Source: an uncultured Roseburia sp.
GTDB lineage: Bacteria > Bacillota > Clostridia > Lachnospirales > Lachnospiraceae
Assembly (NCBI GenBank): GCA_947644305.1
Contig: CANRYS010000002.1
Coordinates: forward strand, 62,001-126,000
DNA length: 64,000 nucleotides
Direction of reading: 5' to 3'
This document shows, piece by piece, positions 4,182 through 45,339 of this stretch. The stretch's first letter is position 1, and every line of letters begins with the position of its first letter. A model generated the notes under the pieces. That model saw only the letters and a program-made list of their open reading frames with translations, ran no database searches and was not told the origin of the DNA. Position numbers and translations under genes: made by a program.

Positions 4182-4961
4182 ATGAAGTACATTGCTTCAT
4201 TCAGTGGTGGCAAAGACAGCACAGCAACAATAATACTTGCACATGAAAACGGAGAACCACTTGACTTGATACTTTTTTCAGAAGTTATGTTTGATGAAAA
4301 CATAAGCGGAGAATTGCCGGAACATATAGATTTTATAAAAAATGTGTGTATTCCGCAATTTGAAAAGTGGGGGTATGAAACAAAAATCCTACATTCAGAA
4401 ACAACGTATATAGATATTTTTTTTCATACAGTACAAAGAAGCAAAGCGGAAGAAAGAAACGGAAAACGCGCTGGCTTTCCTATGGCGGGGAAATGCGCGA
4501 TAAACAGAAGTTGCAAAATAAAAGCGATAAAACAATTTTTTTCCTCTTTTGAAGAAGAGTACACCCAGTATATAGGGATAGCAACGGACAAACCTAAAAG
4601 ACTAGAGCGAATAGACGAAGTGAAAAAAGTATCATTGCTGAAAAAGTATGGATATACAGAGCAGATGGCGTATGAATTATGCAAAGAATACAAGCTGCTA
4701 TCGCCAGTGTATGACTTTACAAAGCGGGGGGGGTGTTGGTTCTGTCCAAACGCAAGAATAAACGAATTGAGACATTTAAGAAAGTACCATCAAGAACTAT
4801 GGGGAAAGCTTATAGATTTAGAAAACGAAAAAAATCTAGTGGGAAACATCTTCAATAAATTGGAAAAGAAGAGCATACATGACATTGAAGAAAAACTGAA
4901 ATGGGAAGATAGGCAGTTTACAATATTTGATTTTATAGGAGGTAACGAAAGTGGAAAATAA
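4182..4961 (+). CDS. Phosphoadenosine phosphosulfate reductase-like PP-loop protein
   Basis: The 259-residue product starts MKYIASFSGGKDS, the PP-loop ATP-pyrophosphatase signature that adenylates a substrate or holds PAPS. A Cys motif, GGCWFCPNA, appears near residue 185. Phage members of this family lie among DNA-metabolism genes and are not part of sulfate assimilation; no APS or sulfite genes lie nearby. Relatives such as DndC modify nucleic acids with sulfur, so base or backbone modification or anti-restriction is possible but unproven. The stop overlaps the next gene by 11 bp, indicating coupling. Confidence 0.75.
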   Translation: MKYIASFSGGKDSTATIILAHENGEPLDLILFSEVMFDENISGELPEHIDFIKNVCIPQFEKWGYETKILHSETTYIDIFFHTVQRSKAEERNGKRAGFPMAGKCAINRSCKIKAIKQFFSSFEEEYTQYIGIATDKPKRLERIDEVKKVSLLKKYGYTEQMAYELCKEYKLLSPVYDFTKRGGCWFCPNARINELRHLRKYHQELWGKLIDLENEKNLVGNIFNKLEKKSIHDIEEKLKWEDRQFTIFDFIGGNESGK

Positions 4962-5847
4962 ACTGATGTATATATGTAGCCCGTACCGGGGCTGTGTAAA
5001 ACGAAACAAAGAGTATGCAAGGTATCTGGCAAAAACGGCAATAGAAAACGGATTCGCGCCAATAGCAACGCATTTATACATAACAGAAGTACTGGACGAA
5101 AACGAGCCAAAAGAAAGAGAAACAGGACTGGCAGCGGGACGGGAAATATTAAAACAGTGTAAATTCGTTCTTTGCGGGGGACGCTACGGAATCACAGAGG
5201 GAATGGCAGCAGAACTAAAGCTGGCAGAAGAACTGGGGACCGTAGTAGTACACGAAAAGAACGGAAAAATATATCATGCCAAAAACAAGGAGGAAGCAAC
5301 AATGAGACAGGAATTGAAAAGAAGTGATTTTGAACAGGGGAACAAAGTAAACTTTGCCGGGCACAGGTGGAATGTTCTGGCAGAAGTGGGGAAAGATAGT
5401 TTTCTCTGCATAACAGAAGATACCGTTTGCAACAAAGCATTTGACGAAGACGGGAGCAACGACTGGCGAAAATCAAGACTTAGAAAATGGTTGAATGAAG
5501 AATTTATCAAAAATTTTGCCGGGCTTGAATTAGTACCGCAAACGCAGGATTTGACTGCGGACGACGGATTGAAAGATTATGGTAGCAGCACAGATTTGAT
5601 TTTCTTGCTGACAGCAGACCAGTACAGAGCATACAGACAGTATATGAAGCAGCTGGATAAATGGTGGTGGTTGATTACACCAGACAGCCCAATAAACACC
5701 TTTGCCCGCTATGTCACTTCCGACGGCACGCTCTACATCAGCAGCGCGTACAGTGGCAACTGCGGCGTGCGCCCCGCTTGTGTGTTACATCTTCAATCGG
5801 AATCGGAAGAAGATAAAACACAGGAAAAAACGGAGGGTGAAGAGTGA
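4951..5847 (+). CDS. Remote DGR target: deoxyribosyltransferase-like domain fused to a variable DUF6273-like domain
   Basis: GTG at 4951 follows AGGAGGTAACGAAA. Residues 1-95 resemble DUF4406/nucleoside 2-deoxyribosyltransferase-like proteins: MYICSPYRG at the start, ETGLAAGREILKQC, and GITEGMAAE near the end. Residues 118-298 form a DUF6273-like C-type-lectin domain ending in GVRPACVL, with the DGR variable repeat VR2 inside it. No signal peptide is present, so it probably acts in the cytoplasm. At 5302 an in-frame ATG lies 8 bases after a perfect AAGGAGG, so the variable domain may also be made alone. Most DGR targets are surface proteins; a diversified early protein is unusual. The fusion may reflect loss of a stop codon between two genes. 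Confidence 0.75.
   Translation: MENKLMYICSPYRGCVKRNKEYARYLAKTAIENGFAPIATHLYITEVLDENEPKERETGLAAGREILKQCKFVLCGGRYGITEGMAAELKLAEELGTVVVHEKNGKIYHAKNKEEATMRQELKRSDFEQGNKVNFAGHRWNVLAEVGKDSFLCITEDTVCNKAFDEDGSNDWRKSRLRKWLNEEFIKNFAGLELVPQTQDLTADDGLKDYGSSTDLIFLLTADQYRAYRQYMKQLDKWWWLITPDSPINTFARYVTSDGTLYISSAYSGNCGVRPACVLHLQSESEEDKTQEKTEGEE
5699..5786 (+). repeat. DGR variable repeat 2 (VR2)
   Basis: This 88-bp segment aligns without gaps to the template repeat at 33571-33658. I count 16 differences, all at template adenines (changed to T, G or C); none of the 60 non-adenine positions differs. An adenine-free block, CGGCGTGCGCCCCG, near the 3' end is identical in template, VR1 and VR2. Identity stops abruptly on both sides at non-adenine mismatches, as expected of a retrohomed patch. 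Confidence 0.9.
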
Positions 5848-7974: not shown

Positions 7975-8065
7975 ATACTTCCGTAAGTATACAGATTGCA
8001 CAAATATACTTCCGTAAGATTATGCAGTTTGCATATTGATTTTATACTTCCGTAAGTATAAAATA
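7975..8065 (+). promoter_or_regulatory. Promoter with three palindromic operators (cluster A)
   Basis: The 12-mer TACTTCCGTAAG, core of the palindrome ATACTTCCGTAAGTAT, starts at 7976, 8007 and 8045. A promoter TTGATT (8036-8041), 17 bp, TAAAAT (8059-8064) has the third copy exactly in its spacer. It reads toward the gene at 8107 and possibly parAB. The same element recurs near 40,250 and 41,250. Confidence 0.75.
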
Positions 8066-8106
8066 GTAGACAGTTAAAGAAAACAAACGAACGGAGGTAA
8101 AAGGAT

Positions 8107-8587: not shown

Positions 8588-9349
8588 ATGAAAACATTAT
8601 CTATTATCAACCTAAAAGGCGGAGTGGCAAAGACTATTTCTAGTATCAACATAGCGCACATACTGGCAGCAGTACATGGATTCAAAGTTCTTTTAATTGA
8701 TAACGACAAGCAGGGGAACGCAAGCAAATTTTTAGGGCGTCACAGCTACGAGCATACCGGAACAGCAGAACTAATGACAGAACGCGGCGTAGATATGGCG
8801 GAAATTATTCAACATACGGACTACGACGGGCTGGACATTATAACAGCGAATATGAATCTTATGCGGGCAAACTTAGAAGTATCGCTTGACCAGAAAAGAC
8901 CGCAGCAGACAAGGTTCAGAACGGCGCTGAAAAGCGTACAAGACAAATACGACTACTGCATTATAGATAATGCGCCGGACTTAAACATATCAACGATAAA
9001 TGCGCTTGTGGCGTCAAATGAAGTAATGGTCCCGATTACGATTGATGATTTTGCCCTTGACGGGCTGGAAGAGTTGGCAGAGCAAATAGAGAATACAAAA
9101 GAGGAACTAAACAGCGATTTAGTTTTCCGGGGCTGCTTTGTAACGCAGTACGAGAAACAGAACGAAGCGGACAGGTACGGTGAGGAATATTTGCAAAACC
9201 TAAAGCACCCGCTTTTCAAGACACATATCAGAAAGACACCAAAAGTTAAACCAAGCACGTTTTACCGCGAACCAATACTGATATATTCCCCGCGGTGCGC
9301 AGCGTCAACAGATTACAAAGAACTGGTGGAAGAATATTTGAAAATGTGA
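8588..9349 (+). CDS. ParA-family partition ATPase
   Basis: ATG at 8588 follows CAGGAGGAATGACAC. The 253-residue protein has the deviant Walker A KGGVAKT near residue 11, the A' motif LIDNDKQGNAS and Walker B in YDYCIIDNAPD. These define a ParA/Soj ATPase that binds DNA and positions plasmid or phage genomes. It is followed after 37 bp by ParB. A partition pair in an integrated phage suggests the excised genome can persist as a plasmid. Confidence 0.92.
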   Translation: MKTLSIINLKGGVAKTISSINIAHILAAVHGFKVLLIDNDKQGNASKFLGRHSYEHTGTAELMTERGVDMAEIIQHTDYDGLDIITANMNLMRANLEVSLDQKRPQQTRFRTALKSVQDKYDYCIIDNAPDLNISTINALVASNEVMVPITIDDFALDGLEELAEQIENTKEELNSDLVFRGCFVTQYEKQNEADRYGEEYLQNLKHPLFKTHIRKTPKVKPSTFYREPILIYSPRCAASTDYKELVEEYLKM

Positions 9350-9386
9350 CCGAATTGGACACGAAAACAGATAGGAGGAATGAAGT

Positions 9387-10808
9387 ATGGTAGCAAAGAA
9401 AGCGTCAATCATGGACATATTAAACCAGCGTTCAAAGGAGAAAGCAGAAGCAGAAAAGAACGCACCGGAAAAAGAGAAAAGCACAACGCAGAAAAAGTTA
9501 TACATAGACCTTTACGACATTATCCCGGAAGAAAAAAACTTCTACAACACCGAAAAGGATTTAGACTGGCTGAAATGGTCAATAGAGCTGCAAGGGCTGA
9601 TAGAACCGTTAGTAGTAACGCCGGACGGAAGCGGAAAATACAAGCTGGTATCTGGACATAGAAGACGCCTTGCACTTCTTGAACTGGTAAAAGAGGGAAA
9701 AGAACGCTTCCGGGATGTGGAATGTAGTATAAGGGATAAGGCAATAACAGAGACGGAAGAAATTATGAACCGTCTGGCAATGATTATGGCAAACGGCTAT
9801 AGGGACAAATCGGACTGGGAACGCATGACAGAAGTCATAGAAACGGAAGCACTCGTGCTGAAACTGAAAGAGCAAATGAATATAAAAGGCAGGACGCGTG
9901 ACCTGTTGGCGGAAATCATAGGAAGCAAGCCAGCACAAGTAGGGAGATACAAGGCAATTTATAACAATCTGTCAGAAGAGTTGATGGAACTATTCAGAGA
10001 AGAAAAGGTAGGAGTTTCAGCAATTTATGAAGCGTCCGGGCTTGGGGAAGAATGGCAGAAAAAAGCGTATAAGGAATACAAAAAAACAGGGGAGTTGTCG
10101 CTAAACGACATTGCAAGGCTGAAAAGGCTGGAAAGAGACGCGCAGGGTGTACCGGGGCAAATAAGCACGGCAGAAGAACAGGAACAACAACCGGAATCAG
10201 AAGAGACAGCGGAAGCTGAACCAGAAGAAGAAACCGGGCTGGAAGAACAAGGGGAAGAAGAATACTTTGAACCAGAGCCGGAAACGTTGACTTCTATCTG
10301 CTACAGCTGCGATAGATACGAAGAGTGCTACGAGAAAAAAGCAACGGTGCGCCAGTGTAACGCATACATTGACCGGGAAGAAGAGAGAAAGACAGAAGAA
10401 CAGCGCTACGAAGAAGAGCAAGCAAAGATTGACGCAGAAACGAGGAAGAAGCTGCGAGAGCAGAAACAGGAAGAAAAGATGGACAATTTGCCGGGCAACA
10501 CACATAAGCAGCGGGATATACGCCTTGCGCGTTCACAATATGAAGAAATAGAAAGCGGTGCATTATCTTTTCTTCTTCTGAAAAAAGACAATTTCAGCGT
10601 AGGCGAAGAATTGACATTGCCGGAATATGCAGACGGGCAAGAAACAGGAAGAACACTAAAACTAAAAATAACATACATCATGGACGACAGAACGGGGCTT
10701 GATGATGAATATTGCATTATAGGATTTTGGCTTATGGGCTGCGCAACAACGGCAGCAGAAGAAGCAGGAACAGACGCAGTACAGCCAGCATTATTGCCGG
10801 GGGTATAG
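9387..10808 (+). CDS. ParB-like nuclease-fold protein with C-terminal DUF3850-like domain
   Basis: ATG at 9387 follows ATAGGAGGAATGAAGT. Residues 35-200 form the ParB core: LYDIIPEEKNFYN, IELQGLIEPLVV, and VSGHRRRLALLEL, the CTP-binding box. A helix-turn-helix region follows (LAEIIGSKPAQVGRYKAI). An acidic linker, a Cys cluster (CYSCDRYEECYEKK) and a last domain of about 85 residues (HKQRDIRLARSQYEEI to YCIIGFWLMGC) resemble DUF3850, an ASCH-like RNA-binding fold. The 473-residue length is long for ParB. It pairs with ParA; no parS site could be assigned. Confidence 0.85.
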   Translation: MVAKKASIMDILNQRSKEKAEAEKNAPEKEKSTTQKKLYIDLYDIIPEEKNFYNTEKDLDWLKWSIELQGLIEPLVVTPDGSGKYKLVSGHRRRLALLELVKEGKERFRDVECSIRDKAITETEEIMNRLAMIMANGYRDKSDWERMTEVIETEALVLKLKEQMNIKGRTRDLLAEIIGSKPAQVGRYKAIYNNLSEELMELFREEKVGVSAIYEASGLGEEWQKKAYKEYKKTGELSLNDIARLKRLERDAQGVPGQISTAEEQEQQPESEETAEAEPEEETGLEEQGEEEYFEPEPETLTSICYSCDRYEECYEKKATVRQCNAYIDREEERKTEEQRYEEEQAKIDAETRKKLREQKQEEKMDNLPGNTHKQRDIRLARSQYEEIESGALSFLLLKKDNFSVGEELTLPEYADGQETGRTLKLKITYIMDDRTGLDDEYCIIGFWLMGCATTAAEEAGTDAVQPALLPGV

Positions 10809-22430: not shown

Positions 22431-23858
22431 ATGGCAAGTATTACGCATGGTATTGAAACAAGCAAGCTGCGCACAAGCGTCTCTACGCCAGTGACAGTTG
22501 CAAGCGGAGTACATTTTGTAGTGGGGACAGCGCCAGTGCATACAGTAGGCGGAAAAGTGAATGAGGTTGTAATGCTGACCACATACGCAGAAGCAGCGGA
22601 ACTGATTGGATATTCCGACGACTGGAAAAAGTACAGCCTTTGCGAAGAAGTCTATACGGCGTTTTCGCTGTATGGGGTATCGCCGATTTTTGTTGTAAAC
22701 GTACTTGACGCAAAGAAACACAAAAAAGAGGTAGAGGGCGAGGAACTGGCGGTTATTGACAATCAAATCAAGCTGCCATTTGAAGCAATCGAGGACACTA
22801 TAATGATAACCGGAAAGACAAAAGATACTGATTACGGCGTAATTTATTCAGATGGTTACTGTATCGTAGAATTTCTGGAAAATACAACGGGGACAATGAC
22901 GGTAAGCTATTCAGCGGTAGCGCCGGAAATGGTGGATAAAAAGGATATTATAGGCGGCTATGACGTCAATACAAAGAAGAACAAAGGCTTTGAATGTATT
23001 GATGAAGTTTTCCCGAAATACACATACGCGCCAGATTTGTTATTGTGTCCAAATTGGTCACACGACAGCGAAGTTGCAGCGATAATGTCAGCGAAATGCG
23101 AGGGAATCAACGGAGTGTTTGACGCAGACGCAATACTGGACATTGACACAACAGACAGTGGGGTTACATATTATTCAGACGCGCCGGAGTGGAAGAAAAA
23201 GAAGAACTTCACAAAAACAAATGAAATTGTATGCTTCCCGCGCTTGAAGCTGGGAGATACGCAGTACAATTTCAGTACGCAGTTAGCCGGGCTTATATCG
23301 CAGACAGACCAAGACGGGGACTACGGGGACGGGACGCCTTGCGAAAGCGCGTCAAACAAATCATTGCAAGCAGACAGCATGGTTATTGCTTCCGGCGAAG
23401 AGGTAGTGCTTGACGTACAGAAAGCAAACTACCTAAACGACAATGGAATTGTAACGGCGCTGAATTTTTACAACGGCTTTGTAAGCTGGGGGAATTATAC
23501 AGCGTGCTATCCGTCGAACACAGACCCAGTTGACTACTTCTACTGCATATCCAGAATGTTCAAATGGGTTGCAAAAACAGTAGTATTGTCATACTGGTCA
23601 AGTCTTGACGGGAAAATGACAAGACGGCTGATTGACACAATACTGCAAGGAATAAACGACTGGCTGAATGGGCTGACGTCGGAGGAAAAAATTCTGGGCG
23701 GGCGCGTAGAGTTTAACGAAGACGAAAACACAACAACGGCGCTGATGGCTGGAAAAGCAAAATTCCATGTATTTCTGACGCCGCCATCACCTATGCAGAA
23801 GCTGGAATTTGTATTTGAATATGACATTTCATATTTGACTACGTTATTTGCAGCATAA
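22431..23858 (+). CDS. Contractile tail sheath protein
   Basis: ATG at 22431 follows GAGGAGGAATAAAAG. The 475-residue product matches P2 FI-type sheaths: GIETSKLRTSVSTPVTVASG at the start, YTYAPDLLLCPNWSHD in the middle, SYWSSLDGKMTRRLIDTI and a C-terminal strand. It contracts to drive the tube into the host. Its presence makes the phage a myovirus despite the lambda-like head genes. Confidence 0.92.
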   Translation: MASITHGIETSKLRTSVSTPVTVASGVHFVVGTAPVHTVGGKVNEVVMLTTYAEAAELIGYSDDWKKYSLCEEVYTAFSLYGVSPIFVVNVLDAKKHKKEVEGEELAVIDNQIKLPFEAIEDTIMITGKTKDTDYGVIYSDGYCIVEFLENTTGTMTVSYSAVAPEMVDKKDIIGGYDVNTKKNKGFECIDEVFPKYTYAPDLLLCPNWSHDSEVAAIMSAKCEGINGVFDADAILDIDTTDSGVTYYSDAPEWKKKKNFTKTNEIVCFPRLKLGDTQYNFSTQLAGLISQTDQDGDYGDGTPCESASNKSLQADSMVIASGEEVVLDVQKANYLNDNGIVTALNFYNGFVSWGNYTACYPSNTDPVDYFYCISRMFKWVAKTVVLSYWSSLDGKMTRRLIDTILQGINDWLNGLTSEEKILGGRVEFNEDENTTTALMAGKAKFHVFLTPPSPMQKLEFVFEYDISYLTTLFAA

Positions 23859-32387: not shown

Positions 32388-33111
32388 TAAATATTACTCA
32401 TTGGTTACAGACGTAGGCGCGGAAAAAATGCTGGAAGCCGTAAACAATGACCGAAAAGTGGATATAACAGAATTTGCGGTAGGAGACGGCAACGGGGCAT
32501 ATTACAAACCGACAGCAGAACAAACGACGCTACGGCATGAAGTATGGCGCGGCGCTGTAAACGCTTGCCGCATTAGCGAAGAATCGGAAAACGTGTTGAT
32601 TGTTGACAGCGTGATACCGTCTGACGCTGGAGGTTTTACAATCCGGGAAATGGCGATATTCGACAGCGAGGGAAACATGATTGCAGTATGTAGCACGCCG
32701 GACACAGAAAAAGTAAAAGTGACAGACGGCGTAGTGCATGAACTTGACTTGTCAATGGAAATCGTACTGACAAATACAGACAGCGTGCAGCTAGTAGTAG
32801 ACCCGAATGTGGTAACAGCAACAAAAAAAGACATAGAGGAAGCAGAAAAACGACTGGGACTGCGTATTGAATCAATCAATCAGACTGTAAATGAGGAATG
32901 GCAGCAAGCACTAATCATCATAGGGCAGCAGAGCAATGTTACAGACGAAATACAAGCGAATATTCTCGACTTGGGGCTTGTGGTCACAGCACTTGCAGAA
33001 GCAAAGGCGATAAACGCGGACAATATCGCACTGGAAACGTTCATGGCAGACAATGATATTATCATGATTTCCGGCGCGTACAGCAAAACAGAAAAGATGG
33101 TGTACGCATAA
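32380..33111 (+). CDS. Tail fibre N-terminal protein (P2 gpH N-terminus-like)
   Basis: ATG at 32380 overlaps gpI and follows AAAGGAGACAGACA. The 243-residue protein starts ASKYYSLVTDVGAEKMLEAV and has GGFTIREMAIFDSEGNMIAV, typical of the fibre-attachment domain (DUF3751-type). A helical C-terminus follows, but no receptor-binding head. The DGR genes come directly after it, so the variable protein at 34989 may supply host binding. Stop and next start overlap as TAATG. Confidence 0.85.
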   Translation: MASKYYSLVTDVGAEKMLEAVNNDRKVDITEFAVGDGNGAYYKPTAEQTTLRHEVWRGAVNACRISEESENVLIVDSVIPSDAGGFTIREMAIFDSEGNMIAVCSTPDTEKVKVTDGVVHELDLSMEIVLTNTDSVQLVVDPNVVTATKKDIEEAEKRLGLRIESINQTVNEEWQQALIIIGQQSNVTDEIQANILDLGLVVTALAEAKAINADNIALETFMADNDIIMISGAYSKTEKMVYA

Positions 33112-33527
33112 TGGCTGTAAAAGCAGGAGAACGGAATCAAGGCGACTTGACAGTGATAACAAAAGCGAAAGACCATGCGGCATATACACTGGCAATAACC
33201 GATAACGAGAAAAATTTTCCGAAGCGTCACAGATTTTCTACAGCAAACAAACTACAGGAAAAGGCTTTCACAATTTTAGAATGTCTCATAGAAGCAAATG
33301 AATTTTACCCGAAGACGCCGGAGGAACTAAACCACAGGCGCTTTCTACAAAGAAAAGCAATAGCTGGCTGTAAATCAATGCTGACAATGATTGATGTATG
33401 CAAACAGCGTTTTGCAATAAAAACAACAACAGTGGAATACTGGACAAGGCAGTTATGGGACATTAGAAATCTGACAGCGGCATGGCTTGTCAAAGACGAA
33501 GCAAGGTTCAAAAGTCTTTTACGGTAG
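33111..33527 (+). CDS. avd: DGR accessory variability determinant (Avd-like)
   Basis: ATG at 33111 overlaps the fibre stop (TAATG). The 138-residue product is basic and almost fully helical, with HRFSTANKLQEKAFTILECL, HRRFLQRKAIAGCKSMLTMI and TVEYWTRQLWDIRNLTAAWL. This is the four-helix-bundle pattern of Avd, which forms a pentamer and binds the DGR reverse transcriptase and RNA. It lies 20 bp before the template repeat and upstream of the RT, the canonical DGR order. Confidence 0.88.
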   Translation: MAVKAGERNQGDLTVITKAKDHAAYTLAITDNEKNFPKRHRFSTANKLQEKAFTILECLIEANEFYPKTPEELNHRRFLQRKAIAGCKSMLTMIDVCKQRFAIKTTTVEYWTRQLWDIRNLTAAWLVKDEARFKSLLR

Positions 33528-33547
33528 AAACATGGGGTATATCCTAC

Positions 33548-33659
33548 AACGCCGAACTCCGGGAACTCGTACAATGCCCGCAATGTCAATTCCGACGGCA
33601 CGCTCAACAACAACAACGCGTACAATGGCAACAACGGCGTGCGCCCCGATTGTGAGAAC
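33548..33659 (+). repeat. DGR template repeat (TR)
   Basis: This 112-bp segment aligns without gaps to 35651-35762 (VR1). It has 34 adenines; 12 differ in VR1 and no other base does. Positions 33571-33658 also align to VR2 with 16 adenine-only differences. AAC and AAT codons, ideal for adenine mutagenesis, cluster at 33606-33617 and around it. The segment is transcribed as RNA and copied by the RT with adenine errors. The block at 33635-33648 has no adenine and is identical in all three copies. Confidence 0.95.
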
Positions 33660-33832
33660 CACGCGACAAAGTAGGCTGCAAAAGCAGCAGAAATCAGAGT
33701 ATCACACAAGGAGGATATATCCCAGCCAGACGGCGAATAAAAGATTGCCGACGCCAGCCACTTCACATTTGAAGTGGCTGTGCTTGCGCTCATTTGCGGC
33801 GGCATGAGCAATAAAAAATAAAGGAAAATTGT
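33660..33832 (+). ncRNA. Structured spacer of the DGR template RNA
   Basis: Between TR and RT lie two hairpins: GCTGC-AAAA-GCAGC at 33675-33688, and an 11-bp stem at 33755-33780 (CAGCCACTTCA/TGAAGTGGCTG, loop CATT). TTGCCGACGC and GCGGCGGCAT can extend the second stem with mismatches. No T-tract follows, so it is not a terminator. In BPP-1 the spacer 3' of TR primes cDNA synthesis and binds RT-Avd; the same role is inferred here. Confidence 0.55.
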
Positions 33833-35053
33833 ATGATAACAAGAAAACAAAATGAATATGACGACTTTGGAATCATGACGGATTTTGAAAATCTGTATCA
33901 AGCACATTGTAAGTGCAGAAAAGGAAAAAGATGGAAAGATAGCGTGGCAACATACGACATACGGGCGCTGGAATGTACGCTATATCTCCAATATTTGTTA
34001 AAAAGCGGGTAGTACAAAATAAGCGAGTATTTTTGCTTTACCGTAAATGAGAGGGGGAAAATAAGAGAAATAAAAAGCACGCAGTATAAAGACCGAGTGG
34101 TGCAGAAAGTTTTATGCGACAAAATTTTGCGCCCGCGTATAGAACCAACTTTCATTTACGACAACGCGGCAAGCGTGACCGGAAAAGGTACTGACCATTC
34201 ATTGAACAGGTTGAAAGAACATTTGCGCAGATTCTATAGAAGACATGGGGCTGACGGCTGGATTTTGGTAGGAGATTTGAAAAGCTACTTTGACAGCATA
34301 CCGCATGAGTTATTAAATGAATTATACGCAAAAGAGTTTTCGGACAAGTACATAATGGGATTGATACGGCATATTCACGCAAGCATACCGGGCGGCGTAG
34401 GCGTACCGCTGGGGAACGAAACTTCACAGATAGACGCGTTACTGGCTTTTAGCGCGGTAGACCATTACATCAAAGAGAATAAGGGAATAAAGGAATATGG
34501 AAGATATATGGACGATTTCTATTTGATACATGAAAGCAAAGAATATCTGGAAGAGTGCAAGCGGGAAATCGAACAAAAAGCAATAAAACTGGGCTTGAAG
34601 CTGAATACGAAAAAGACGCGTATAGTCCGCATTACAACCGGAATAAATTTTCTGGGCTTTCATATCTACATCACAGAAAGTGGGAAAGTGATAATGCGGA
34701 TAAAGGCGAAGAGCAAGAGTAGGGAACGGCAGAAGCTACGAAAATACAAAAGGAAAGTAGAAGCCGGGGAAATGGAAATGGCAGCAGTACGGGAAGCATA
34801 CAAGGCATGGAAGGCACACGCAAAGAGGGGCAATACATACTATATGCTTCAAGAAATGGACTGCTATTTCTACGGCTTATTTGAAAAGTATCTGACGCCG
34901 GAAGAAAAGACCCGGTACGAAAAGCTGAAAATCAGTCAATCAAATAGGCTGGAAAAAAGAAAAGAAAAAACAAGGAGGAAAAGAGAAAATGGCAAAAGCT
35001 TTAAAAACGCTGGCGGTAGGGGCGAAAGTCAAAGATACCGGGACAACGTATAA
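33833..35053 (+). CDS. DGR reverse transcriptase, interrupted by an in-frame TAG
   Basis: From ATG 33833 (AAGGAAAATTGT upstream) the frame encodes a DGR-type RT: ENLYQAHCKCRKGKRWKDSV, then after a TAG at 34010-34012 (codon 60) FCFTVNERGKIREI, DRVVQKVLCDKI, GDLKSYFDSIPH, VPLGNETSQ (the DGR form of motif 4) and catalytic YMDDFYLI. A basic thumb/C-terminus follows. Without the TAG it would be about 406 residues, normal for the family. A start at GTG 34097 would lack the first RT motif. The 3' end overlaps the target gene by 65 bp. The TAG may be a nonsense mutation, sequence error or readthrough site. Confidence 0.85.
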
Positions 35054-36704
35054 CGGAAAGCCAATACTGTTTACGATTATGGAACATGACCACGCAGGAG
35101 ACCCGGCAGGAACAACGGCGTTAATAACGTCAAACATTATTACGCTGAAATGCTTTGACGCAATCGAAGCGTCGAATAACGACAGCGGTCGGAAGTCATA
35201 CGGAAACAATAGATATTCCGTATCAAACTTGAAACAGTGGTTAAATTCAGACGCAGAAGCCGGAAAGTGGTATGCAGCACAGCACAGCGCAGACGCAGCG
35301 CCGAATAATTCAAATGTGTGGTCGAATTACAATGAATATGACCAAGAAAAAGGATTTTTGGCGAACTTTTCCGCAAAAATGAAAAACGCGCTGCAAACCG
35401 TAACGAAACGGACAGTGAAAAACACAGTAACGGACAGCGGAAGTTACGAAGAAGTTAGCCAGAAAGTATTTTTGCTATCGACAACAGAAGTGGGACTGGC
35501 AAACGAGAACAACATTGCAGAGGGAAGTGTATACGCACTTTTTCCGACAGCAAATAGTAGGATTGCAAAACCAACAGCGGAAGCGATAAGTAATTCAGAA
35601 TATAAATCTACAAATATTGAAACAGGAAAGTCATGGAGATGGTGGCTTAGAACGCCGAACTCCGGGAGCTCGTACGATGCCCGCTATGTCTATTCCGACG
35701 GCACGCTCAACTACAACTACGCGTACTATGGCAACAGCGGCGTGCGCCCCGCTTGTGTGGTCGCCTCTTCTATCTTTGTTTCTGATACGCCAGACAGTGA
35801 CGGCGCATATACGATACTGTGGAACAGCGCACCGAATATCACTACAGCAAGCGAAAATCTGGGAGACAAAAACACGCCGTTCAGCTTTACGTACACAATC
35901 ACAGACGCAGACAATGACACAGTAAGCGCGACAGTGACGCTTGACGGGACAAATATACAAACGTTAAGCGAAGCGGTATTGGGGCATGAATACAGCATAA
36001 ATATGACAGCACAGGCATTGACACAGCTGGCAACGGGCGCGCATACATACGCAATAAAAGCAGTAGACGCGTATGGAAACGAAAGCACAAAAACAATAAA
36101 GTTTAACAAAGTCGCTTCTTCCGTAGCGATTTCCGGCGAAGATGGAAGCATGGGAACAAAGTGGAATCCGTTCCAGTACGCCTATCAAGTAACAGACGAA
36201 GACGGGAAAGCGATAACGGCGAAAGAGTTTATAGACGACGAACTGACGCGGACGGTAGAAAATGCGCCGCAGGGAACGGACATAATCTTTGATATGTCAA
36301 AATTTGCAGAACTGCAAAGCGAAGAAACACACACGTTAATGATAGAAGCAGTAAATGCAGACGGTGACGAAGCGTTCAGAACGGTAAATTTCAAGAAACT
36401 GGCAGACAAGCTGATGTTTGAGTTGAAACCAATAGAAACAGACGCACCAGCGGAAAAAATTATGGTAGAAGCGGATTTTGAACCAAAAGACGCCGAGCGA
36501 TTGATTGAAGTCACAAACTGCGTATACAACGCAGAAGTTATCTGGGAAGACATGACGGCGGAAGCGCGAGAACGGAAGCCACACGAATTTCAGAACAAAA
36601 ACTTTGACAGCGAACGCTACGGCGTAGCAGCACGCGTCACAATCAAAAAGGATGATACGACAGAAAGAGTATACTGTTACGGCGTGGCACTGCAATACGA
36701 TTGA
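34989..36704 (+). CDS. DGR target protein: DUF6273-like variable domain plus Ig-like domains
   Basis: ATG at 34989 has AAGGAGGAAAAGAGAAA upstream, inside the RT 3' end. The 571-residue protein has a C-type-lectin-like DUF6273 domain at residues 1-260 (SVSNLKQWLNSDAEAGKWY, WWLRTPNSGSSYDARYVYSD, GVRPACVVA). VR1 lies at its end. About 310 residues of Ig-like beta domains follow (AYTILWNSAPNITTASENL). It sits after the fibre gene in a myovirus tail module, so it is probably the receptor-binding adhesin. The VR is internal, whereas in many DGR proteins it is C-terminal. Confidence 0.9.
   Translation: MAKALKTLAVGAKVKDTGTTYNGKPILFTIMEHDHAGDPAGTTALITSNIITLKCFDAIEASNNDSGRKSYGNNRYSVSNLKQWLNSDAEAGKWYAAQHSADAAPNNSNVWSNYNEYDQEKGFLANFSAKMKNALQTVTKRTVKNTVTDSGSYEEVSQKVFLLSTTEVGLANENNIAEGSVYALFPTANSRIAKPTAEAISNSEYKSTNIETGKSWRWWLRTPNSGSSYDARYVYSDGTLNYNYAYYGNSGVRPACVVASSIFVSDTPDSDGAYTILWNSAPNITTASENLGDKNTPFSFTYTITDADNDTVSATVTLDGTNIQTLSEAVLGHEYSINMTAQALTQLATGAHTYAIKAVDAYGNESTKTIKFNKVASSVAISGEDGSMGTKWNPFQYAYQVTDEDGKAITAKEFIDDELTRTVENAPQGTDIIFDMSKFAELQSEETHTLMIEAVNADGDEAFRTVNFKKLADKLMFELKPIETDAPAEKIMVEADFEPKDAERLIEVTNCVYNAEVIWEDMTAEARERKPHEFQNKNFDSERYGVAARVTIKKDDTTERVYCYGVALQYD
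35651..35762 (+). repeat. DGR variable repeat 1 (VR1)
   Basis: Ungapped partner of the TR at 33548-33659. All 12 differences are at TR adenines: 33565, 33573, 33582, 33588, 33609, 33615, 33624, 33634, 33649, 33655, 33657 and 33658. The changed codons turn Asn-type codons into Tyr, Asp and Ser in the lectin-like domain. Identity ends at a non-adenine mismatch (35763). Confidence 0.95.
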
Positions 36705-39931: not shown

Positions 39932-40203
39932 TCATGCTTCATGCTTTCTCAATTCATTATAGACGTGCTTTCCCATTTCCCGCATGGCTTCTGGCGTTTC
40001 TTTGACAAACATTGCGAAAAGGAAAGTCATAAATTCACTTTTTGTCTGCTGCCATTCTTCCGGGGTCATGTTAGGATTTGCCGCCAGCTTCATTTCAAGC
40101 AATTTCTGGGTCATTTCTTGACCAGCGGGCATATTCAGTGCTTTTCTTTCTGCTTCTGACACCTTTTCAATAAATTCATCAAAATTATTTGCTATCTGCA
40201 TTA
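39932..40203 (-). CDS. Hypothetical protein of the leftward operon (90 aa)
   Basis: Minus-strand ATG at 40203 has AGAGAGGGAAGCATA before it; upstream in-frame ATGs lie in the promoter and are unlikely. The product (MQIANNFDEFIEKVSEAERK, then PNMTPEEWQQTKSEFMTFLF) is acidic and helical. It is transcribed from the palindrome-containing promoter at 40233-40261. No known family. Confidence 0.6.
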
Positions 40204-40232
40204 TGCTTCCCTCTCTTTCATTTGATAAGTTT

Positions 40233-40322
40233 ATTATATACTTACGGAAGTATAATTTCAATAGGCAAAATACACAAACTTACGGAAGTATAACTGTGCA
40301 TTTTATATATACTTCCGTAAGA
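40233..40322 (-). promoter_or_regulatory. Leftward promoter with palindromic operators (cluster B)
   Basis: On the minus strand TTGAAA (40261-40256), 17 bp, TATAAT (40238-40233) forms a strong promoter, with operator ATACTTCCGTAAGTAT exactly in the spacer (core 40241-40252). Further copies have cores at 40279-40290 and 40310-40321. Spacings of 31 and 38 bp mirror cluster A at 7975-8065. Confidence 0.78.
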
Positions 40323-40874: not shown

Positions 40875-41201
40875 TTATAAGTGCGTAGCCATTCCGGTTG
40901 TTGCGGTGAATATTTCTTGTAGCATATCAGCATATACGCCGGAAATAATCTTTATATCTTCCTGCTTGTCTGGGGTCCATGCGAAAGTTGTTTTATTGAG
41001 CCGTCCGGCAGTAAATTTGAAAAAGTGCATTGCATAAGTGTCCGTTGCGTCAAGGGTGATATAAAGGCGGTTTGCCTTGCTGCGATTTTTAGGAAGTGTC
41101 ATGCGCAGCGTGTTTCCGTCTGATAAGAAATTCTTTGCGCCAGTCATTGCAATAAATTTATTGCCGCCGAGTTGTTCAAGGATTGTATTTGCTATGGTCA
41201 T
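40875..41201 (-). CDS. Hypothetical protein, first gene of the leftward operon (108 aa)
   Basis: Minus-strand ATG at 41201 has AGAGAGGGAAACACA upstream; longer frames run into the promoter. The product (MTIANTILEQLGGNKFIAMT, then NTLRMTLPKNRSKANRLYIT and MHFFKFTAGRLNKTTFAWTP) looks beta-rich and compact. Related proteins occur in phages and mobile elements, but I do not know the function. Expressed from promoter cluster C. Confidence 0.6.
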   Translation of the reverse strand: MTIANTILEQLGGNKFIAMTGAKNFLSDGNTLRMTLPKNRSKANRLYITLDATDTYAMHFFKFTAGRLNKTTFAWTPDKQEDIKIISGVYADMLQEIFTATTGMATHL

Positions 41202-41232
41202 TGTGTTTCCCTCTCTTTCATTTGATAAATCT

Positions 41233-41340
41233 ATTATATACTTACGGAAGTATAAAAGCAATAGGCATTTTGCACAAATATACTTCCGTAAAATTGTGCA
41301 AGGTTTATACTTCCGTAAGATAAGAAAACGTGATATACTA
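41233..41340. promoter_or_regulatory. Divergent promoter region with palindromic operators (cluster C)
   Basis: Leftward: TTGCTT (41261-41256), 17 bp, TATAAT (41238-41233), with the operator (core 41241-41252) in the spacer. Other copies have cores at 41281-41292 (last base A instead of G) and 41308-41319. Rightward: TGATATACT at 41331-41339 is an extended -10 for the RHH gene at 41401. The RHH protein may control both directions. Confidence 0.72.
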
Positions 41341-44163: not shown

Positions 44164-45234
44164 ATGATGGAGAAAGATCAAAATAAAGTAAAAGCATTGG
44201 AGTCTGCGATTGCGCAGATAGAAAAACAGTATGGAAAAGGCTCTGTGATGAAACTGGGCGATACCACATCGCGAATGGGCGTTGAAGTAGTACCCACCGG
44301 TTCCCTCAGTCTAGATATCGCTCTGGGAGTCGGCGGTATTCCTAAAGGAAGGATCATCGAGGTCTATGGTCCCGAATCCAGTGGTAAGACCACTGTTGCC
44401 CTGCATATGGTGGCAGAAGTGCAAAAACGGGGAGGAATTGCGGGATTTATTGATGCAGAGCATGCGCTGGATCCCACCTATGCCCGGAATATTGGGGTGG
44501 ACATCGATGAATTATACATATCTCAGCCGGATTGTGGTGAACAGGCGCTGGAGATCACCGAGACGATGGTGCGCTCTGGAGCGGTGGATATCGTGATCGT
44601 GGATTCGGTGGCAGCTCTTGTACCGAAAGCAGAGATCGATGGAGACATGGGAGACAGTCATGTAGGACTTCAGGCAAGGCTGATGAGTCAGGCGCTGAGA
44701 AAGCTTACAAGTGTTATTAACAAATCAAATTGCATCGTTATATTCATCAACCAGCTCCGGGAGAAGATCGGTGTTATGTTTGGTAATCCAGAGACTACCA
44801 CGGGTGGCCGCGCCCTGAAATTTTATGCTTCCGTGCGACTTGATGTCAGAAGAGTGGAGACATTGAAACAGGGTGGTGAGATGATTGGTAACCACGTCCG
44901 TGTAAAAGTGGTCAAAAATAAGGTGGCACCTCCTTTCCAGGAGGCAGAATTTGATATCATGTTCGGAAAGGGAATTTCCAGAGAAGGCGATGTTCTGGAT
45001 CTTGCCACAAAGAACGATATCATTGCGAAGAGCGGAGCATGGTATTCCTATAAGGGAGAGAAGATCGGACAGGGACGGGAGAATGCCAAGACTTATCTTG
45101 CCGATAATCCGACAGTATTTGAAGAGGTAGAACGTCTGGTACGTGCCAGGTACGTAGAACAGTCAGAAGAAGAAACTGTGCCTGAGGAAAAAGAGAGTAA
45201 AAAGAAAAAATCTTCAGTAAAGGAAGAGAAGTAA
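44164..45234 (+). CDS. recA: Recombinase RecA
   Basis: ATG at 44164 lies after TTGGAGGATATTGAA. The 356-residue protein has [12 protein letters not shown], Walker [10 protein letters not shown], the Walker B region [20 protein letters not shown], loop L2 [20 protein letters not shown] and an acidic/basic C-terminal tail. It catalyses strand exchange and activates LexA cleavage, and it can trigger prophage induction. The 3' 76 bp are duplicated downstream. recX follows, the usual order. Confidence 0.98.
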
Positions 45235-45339
45235 AAGGGATTACTTTATAAAAGGTAGGAATGACAGTCAGAAGAAGAAACTGTGCCTGAGGAAAAAGAG
45301 AGTAAAAAGAAAAAATCTTCAGTAAAGGAAGAGAAGTAA
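45159..45339 (+). repeat. Tandem duplication of the recA 3' end
   Basis: The 76 bp at 45159-45234 (last 25 codons of recA with stop) recur identically at 45264-45339, a period of 105 bp. The second copy has no start and ends just before recX. The intervening 29 bp are not duplicated. It is a recent duplication or a scar of recombination. Confidence 0.85.

What the first reader, a model, noticed from the sequence alone, without database searches (positions are those of the whole stretch)
33111..36704. Complete diversity-generating retroelement in a contractile-tail prophage
Avd-like gene, template repeat, structured spacer, YMDD reverse transcriptase and target gene lie in one 3.6-kb block at the tail-fibre position. 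My base-by-base alignment of TR 33548-33659 with VR1 35651-35762 gives 12 differences, all at template adenines, and none at the 78 other positions. That pattern is the mark of adenine-specific mutagenic retrohoming.
Basis: partly seen in the sequence, partly recalled or inferred. Interest (0 to 1): 0.95.

Follow-up and report, generated by a model that had tools for sequence, protein, structure and literature searches.

The report
Two-target hypermutation element with broken enzyme
A prophage carries a known kind of self-mutating cassette that has rewritten two of its own genes, one at the tail end and one among its DNA-replication genes, although the copying enzyme in this copy is cut by a stop codon.

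Summary
The diversity-generating retroelement (DGR) is real: TR 33548-33659 and VR1 35651-35762 differ at 12 positions, all template A (P about 1e-7); Avd and an RT domain are confirmed.

(1) The RT frame 33833-35053 is not open: TAG at 34010-34012. In 62 of 63 relatives' loci checked (of 80 fetched) the frame is open there. The cassette looks recently disabled.

(2) A second repeat, VR2, lies 27.9 kb away at 5700-5784 in a small DUF6273 gene, with 13 differences, all at template A.

Two-target DGRs of this sort ('tentaclin' plus small DUF6273 protein) are published for phages nd4 and nd12 (PMC10743442): a new member of a known kind. Not found in the parts of papers I read: the second target sits among replication genes, here, in 5 of 5 other remote-VR phages with informative annotation (of 7), and around IMG/VR relatives. 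No membrane segment in 30 proteins. It diversifies in relatives: one pair is identical outside VR2 but differs at 12 template-A sites inside. This speaks against, without excluding, the published guess of an Mtd-like receptor binder.

The parts
33111..33527 (+). avd accessory gene
   Evidence: phrog_3206 'Avd protein of DGR' E 2.6e-23; NF033474 below its cut-off
33548..33659 (+). template repeat TR; 34 adenines
33660..33832 (+). spacer of the template RNA, structured
   Evidence: fold z -3.84 for 33655-33832; motifs shared by 9 sequences
33833..34009 (+). RT gene, first piece (59 codons before the stop)
   Evidence: phrog_1423 E 6e-7; 45/58 identical to L004 RT
34010..34012 (+). in-frame TAG that interrupts the RT gene
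   Evidence: L004 RT is continuous here; 62 of 63 relatives' loci open here
34013..35053 (+). RT gene, second piece with the catalytic YMDD
   Evidence: RVT_1 E 7e-23; phrog_1423 E 3e-89
34989..36704 (+). target gene 1, tentaclin: N-terminal DUF6273 plus Ig-like part
   Evidence: PF19789 E 2.6e-34; 41% identical over its full length to nd12 tgt1
35651..35762 (+). variable repeat VR1
   Evidence: 12 differences to TR, 12 at A
4951..5847 (+). target gene 2 (remote): DUF7768 part 4951-5301 in frame with a DUF6273 part
5302..5847 (+). DUF6273 part of target 2, with its own ATG and ribosome-site-like stretch; probably also translated alone
   Evidence: PF19789 E 2.7e-13; phrog_9958 E 3.5e-45; sequence; relative L046 has a like start
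5700..5784 (+). variable repeat VR2, second target of the same TR
   Evidence: 13 differences to TR 33572-33656, 13 at A

Best explanation
It is a diversity-generating retroelement of a contractile-tail temperate phage with one template and two targets. When active, the template RNA is copied by the Avd-RT complex with random bases opposite A, and the cDNA replaces VR1 in the tentaclin gene at the tail-fibre position and VR2 in a small gene among replication genes. Shown: A-only differences for both VRs and the same layout in relatives. From knowledge of DGRs: the copying and homing steps. Inferred: the tentaclin is a virion adhesin; the second target is a cytoplasmic, early-made binding protein, not a virion part, whose variable surface follows a fast-changing partner inside the cell (a host defence or rival-phage protein is my guess). 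In this prophage the RT gene has an in-frame stop, so the cassette is probably now silent, after a recent spell of activity.
For: TR/VR1 12 of 12 at A, TR/VR2 13 of 13 at A, VR1 versus VR2 13 of 13 at template A. Remote VR more than 10 kb away in 6 of 13 records scanned, plus Brigit and Toutatis from fetched parts. In IMG/VR, 8 of 9 contigs holding both genes have VR2, with 100 of 100 differences at A. Control with C or G as the tolerated base: 0 of 13 records and 0 of 9 contigs; T: 3 of 13 and 0 of 9, the 3 being those with the cassette on the minus strand. Closest relative, in two contigs of one metagenome: 8 of 8 differences over 70 nt at A. Target 2 genes of L067/L065: 0/560 differ outside VR2, 12/76 inside, all at A. 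Neighbours of remote target 2 genes, 95 scanned: DnaC loader 7, Rep 6, RusA 5, DNA polymerase exonuclease 5. No 19-residue stretch above 1.6 in hydropathy in 30 proteins, 24 of them from remote loci or the window. RT stop. No non-A difference to TR at 78 (VR1) and 60 (VR2) sites suggests recent homing.
Against: Gene position is not expression: there are no transcript or virion data. C-lec DGR targets are usually taken to be extracellular binders, and Mtd-like use of target 2 (the published guess) is not excluded. The hydropathy test is crude and no signal-peptide predictor was run. The stop could be a sequencing error or be bypassed. No structure was obtained. In 20 of 65 loci the small DUF6273 target stands right beside the cassette, so the replication-module place is not universal. 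Of 15 phage records, 7 have only a local VR.
Confidence: 0.55

Rival explanations
1. Target 2 is a receptor-binding virion protein like Mtd of BPP-1, as Baykov et al. 2023 propose; its gene simply sits away from the tail genes.
For: C-lec fold with a variable hairpin in nd4 and nd12 target 2 models (PMC10743442, sections read); the same TR serves a gene at the tail-fibre position.
Against: The gene lies among DnaC, Rep, RusA and SSB genes (annotations); no Ig domain found in target 2; it is in frame with a nucleotide-metabolism-like domain in the window (DUF7768).
Confidence: 0.25
2. Target 2 acts at the cell surface or in lysogeny, for example as superinfection exclusion.
For: Temperate phage with an integrase; a protein matched to local receptors would suit exclusion (inference).
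Against: No membrane stretch in 30 proteins.
Confidence: 0.2
3. The DGR is fully active: the TAG is an error, is suppressed, or the second piece works alone.
For: No non-A drift between TR and either VR; both pieces well kept.
Against: TAG ends 8 of the 37 ORFs that I took as prophage genes, Avd among them; the in-frame GTG at 34097 would leave out a stretch that L004 keeps; RT frames are broken elsewhere too (L110; G016; L102), so loss seems to recur.
Confidence: 0.25
4. The TR/VR similarity is ordinary repeat divergence.
For: None found.
Against: A-only differences in both VRs; 0 pairs with C or G as the tolerated base.
Confidence: 0.01

Closest known systems
Phages nd12 and nd4, two-target DGRs with tentaclins (Baykov et al. 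2023, PMC10743442)
   Same: one TR for a tentaclin (VR in its first half) and a small DUF6273 target 2 (VR near its 3' end); TR-RT-target 1 order; tgt1 of nd12 41% identical over its length
   Different: RT matches in nd12 and nd4 lie in annotated CDS, here a stop cuts the gene; nd12 target 2 has a DUF3310-like part (paper), here DUF7768
IMG/VR 3300043003_000027 and _000080 (L004, L046), probably pieces of one phage
   Same: closest RT with an open frame (78% and 63% to the two pieces); both targets with A-only differences
   Different: RT uninterrupted; target 2 has no DUF7768-like part in its frame
IMG/VR 3300010270_000007 (L110, L047)
   Same: RT 66%, target 2 48%; VR2 17 of 17 at A, VR1 15 of 17
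   Different: its RT frame is also broken in this stretch, by a frame change
Roseburia phage Shimadzu; Faecalibacterium phages Lelie, Toutatis, Brigit; Dulem virus 34
   Same: remote VR in a small gene away from the virion genes
   Different: in Shimadzu and Dulem34 the local VR lies upstream of the TR, in a tail-fibre or Ig-like gene
Bordetella phage BPP-1 DGR (recalled)
   Same: TR, VR, Avd, RT, A-specific homing
   Different: one target, Mtd; no remote early target

Membership tests
Diversity-generating retroelement | TR/VR pair differing at template adenines only | tested here: met
   12 of 12 and 13 of 13
Diversity-generating retroelement | RT of the DGR kind near TR | tested here: met
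   RVT_1 and phrog_1423; its relatives L004, nd12, nd4, Shimadzu sit in cassettes with TR and VR. No tree was built; NCBIfam's best match is group II intron RT, below cut-off
Diversity-generating retroelement | RT gene intact | tested here: not met
   TAG at 34010
Diversity-generating retroelement | Avd or other accessory protein | tested here: met
   phrog_3206
Diversity-generating retroelement | ongoing VR variation in this strain | not testable with these tools
   no reads; variation seen only between relatives
Tentaclin (target 1) | N-terminal DUF6273/C-lec, Ig-like domains, shared C-terminal Ig part | tested here: met
   DUF6273; 41% identity through the C-terminus to nd12 tgt1. Pfam Ig match below cut-off; the seven-residue consensus was not checked
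Two-target tentaclin DGR | second VR of the same TR near the 3' end of a small DUF6273 gene | tested here: met
Mtd-like receptor-binding target | C-lec fold with virion-anchoring domains | tested here: inconclusive
   only DUF7768 and DUF6273 found in target 2; the structure job did not return

The most novel reading that the evidence does not exclude
These phages use one template to diversify two arms at once: an adhesin on the virion and an early, intracellular recognition protein made with the replication genes, i.e. a hypermutable counter-defence or rival-recognition protein. Surveys that look for VRs next to the RT miss this class (PMC8144416 says its approach would not detect remote targets; passage).
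Probability: 0.35. Interest if true: 0.78.

Novelty: new member of a known kind. Interest (0 to 1): 0.5.

Why it matters
The element itself is of a published type. The repeated placing of the second target among replication genes makes an open question testable: what a hypermutated C-lec-type protein does when it is not part of the virion. If it is intracellular, DGRs serve more than host adsorption.

Tried and rejected
Trans-complementation by another RT in the genome: two other loci match the RT profile; both fit the retron_St85 model best, C27 above and C9 below its cut-off. NCBIfam gave no DGR-type RT match for any of the four RTs scanned, so this is a retron call, not a test against a DGR model. 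Recoding of TAG: judged unlikely because TAG ends 8 of 37 ORFs taken as prophage genes. I did not search the genome outside the window for a suppressor tRNA; the window has no tRNA. Exact A-masked TR pattern: 0 hits in viral contigs and genome contigs. RT piece against genome contigs: 35 pattern stretches, 0 relatives. RT at E 1e-80 or better in 299 genomes of the family: own only; at 1e-40 in 39 of the genus: 5 including own. Rfam at gathering score: 0. A target 2 profile of 7 sequences was too diverse to search; 4 sequences worked. Papers: PMC10743442 abstract, Results, Discussion and figure legends; PMC5883640, PMC11792537 and PMC8144416 passages only; the Shimadzu paper not seen. That the replication-module place is not in print rests on these parts and on the searches.
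Full report
WHAT IS THERE. A repeat of 110 nt links 33545-33654 to 35648-35757. Compared base by base, TR 33548-33659 and VR1 35651-35762 differ at 12 of 112 positions, all at the 34 template adenines, P = 1.2e-7 if differences fell at random. The differing adenines stand in codon positions 1 and 2 of the target. Avd (phrog_3206), a reverse transcriptase (RVT_1, phrog_1423) and a DUF6273 target with a weak Ig-like match fill the block. Next to it lie baseplate J, tail protein I and a tail-collar fibre gene; a sheath gene lies at 22431-23858, and an integrase 1.2-2.8 kb left of the window (serine-type is inferred from its invertase match). recA and RNase Y to the right are host genes. So it is an integrated contractile-tail prophage. 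The host was not identified.

THE RT IS INTERRUPTED. The frame from ATG 33833 meets TAG at 34010-34012. Both pieces match the same family on their own and align to one continuous RT in L004 with 78% and 63% identity. Of 63 relatives' RT loci examined (of 80 fetched), 58 passed my open-frame test; four (L004, L111, L113, L127) failed only because the frame ends, 310-330 codons on, before the end of the match, and one, L110, has a true break at this stretch. Broken RTs also appear in G016 (one TGA inside the match) and L102 (two adjoining pieces); contig errors are possible there. TAG is an ordinary end codon in this prophage (8 of 37 ORFs taken as genes). The two other RT loci of the genome fit a retron model best. 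I read this as recent inactivation: TR and the two VRs show no difference at non-A sites (0 of 78; 0 of 60). A sequencing error cannot be excluded.

A SECOND TARGET. A search of the whole genome with the TR found a third copy, window 5700-5784, which differs from TR 33572-33656 at 13 positions, all adenines (P = 7e-9); two more template adenines just beyond also differ. VR1 and VR2 differ from each other at 13 of 85 positions, all template adenines. VR2 lies near the 3' end of ORF 4951-5847, whose first part is DUF7768 (nucleoside 2-deoxyribosyltransferase by PHROG) and second part DUF6273. An ATG with a ribosome-site-like stretch at 5302 and a like start in relative L046 suggest that the DUF6273 part is also made alone. 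Its neighbours are a PAPS-reductase-like gene and a VRR-NUC nuclease.

RELATIVES. In 13 records scanned by script, 6 have a second VR more than 10 kb from the TR: window, nd12, nd4, Shimadzu, Lelie and Dulem34; 7 have only a local VR (four of the 13, Lelie, MT835491, Taranis and phiWae15, were fetched only in part, and some are incomplete contigs). Brigit and Toutatis, of which only parts were fetched, have a remote VR too. The records were chosen for RT likeness, so this is no census. In IMG/VR, 9 contigs came up with both genes; in 8 the VR2 differs from the contig's own TR only at A, 100 of 100 differences, and in the ninth no TR was found. The scripts tolerate A by design; with C or G as the tolerated base they find 0 pairs in 13 records and 0 in 9 contigs; with T they find 3 self pairs, as many as there are records with the cassette on the minus strand, and 0 of 9. 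Exceptions to A-only in named phages: 1 of 10 differences in nd4 VR2 and 1 of 16 in Lelie VR2, 1 of 14 in Toutatis and 2 of 9 in Brigit, in untrimmed matches. Local VR1 exceptions occur as well, for example 2 of 17 in L110 and 2 of 18 in L126.

THE SECOND TARGET DIVERSIFIES IN RELATIVES. Target 2 genes of L067 and L065 are identical at 560 positions outside VR2 and differ at 12 of 76 inside, all template A. Lelie and Toutatis share the TR stretch compared and differ at 17 of 101 inside (16 at A) and 12 of 547 outside. Of the 11 IMG/VR pairs tried, two were identical where they overlap, two (L055/L064 16 of 16, L079/L081 20 of 20) differ inside only at A like L067/L065, four have some non-A changes inside (15 of 20, 16 of 18, 12 of 14, 16 of 21 at A), and two involving L084 are too diverged to tell (11 of 23 and 11 of 22 at A).

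WHERE THE SECOND TARGET SITS. In annotated records it lies in the early block: beside a DNA polymerase III alpha-like gene in nd4, upstream of exonuclease and RecT genes in Brigit, upstream of the replication initiator in Toutatis, between methyltransferase and Erf genes in Shimadzu, and between methyltransferase and Rep genes in Dulem34. Lelie and nd12 have no telling names around it. Around remote-class IMG/VR target 2 genes and the window's, 95 neighbours were scanned: DnaC-like loader 7, replication initiation 6, RusA 5, DNA polymerase exonuclease 5, pyrophosphatase 4, helicase 3, SSB 2, against endolysin 3 and peptidase 3, and no capsid, sheath or baseplate family among the 25 commonest of 190; the rarer families are not shown. 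The class of L073, whose cassette lies about 3 kb off, is uncertain. In an earlier mixed set of 105 neighbours, Avd (8) and phrog_9958 (12) also appear, and a 'lytic tail fiber' family twice. In 20 of the 65 loci a small DUF6273 target stands directly beside Avd-TR-RT, in 18 of them with a VR by script, so small targets are found in both places. None of 30 target 2 proteins (24 remote-class or window, 6 cassette-adjacent) has a 19-residue stretch above 1.6 on the Kyte-Doolittle scale; the highest is 1.45 in L059. A solved relative of the DUF6273 domain is an IgA protease chain, 9qa6, which shows only that the domain occurs in other contexts.

WHAT IS KNOWN. Baykov et al. 2023 (PMC10743442) described tentaclins and two-target DGRs in nd4 and nd12, with 39 of 54 nd4-like genomes holding both targets, and proposed that target 2 binds receptors like Mtd. 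PMC11792537 (passages) found second variable regions in Lelie, CP11 and Lagaffe_CP and cites Shimadzu; functions are called unclear. PMC5883640 (passages) speaks of one target each for the phages it names, Brigit and Toutatis among them. PMC8144416 (passages) says its survey would not detect remote targets. None of the parts I saw discusses the replication-module position.

VERDICT. Known kind, new member; RT broken in this copy; the second target among replication genes is the part worth following.

Noticed in passing
window 45148-45339: The 3' end of recA is followed by a near-copy of itself (87 nt, 95%), perhaps a scar of an insertion or a tandem duplication.
   Followed up: no
window 40186-40309, 41186-41309, 7978-8066: Long imperfect repeats near the right end of the prophage and an inverted copy near the ParA-like gene; could be partition or regulatory sites.
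   Followed up: no
window 8588-10808: ParA-like gene and a gene with DUF3850 and a weak ParB_N match in a prophage that also has an integrase.
   Followed up: partly
L110 9781-10930: Closest long relative also has its RT frame broken close to the same place, by a frame change; RT loss may recur in these phages.
   Followed up: partly
L027 4808-8909 (C9 of the genome): Retron-like RT beside a 994-aa ORF with DUF6273 on the other strand; no TR/VR-like repeat pair recognised there.
   Followed up: partly
window 5302-5844 and 34989-35766: DUF6273 has a solved sequence relative in an IgA protease (9qa6).
   Followed up: no
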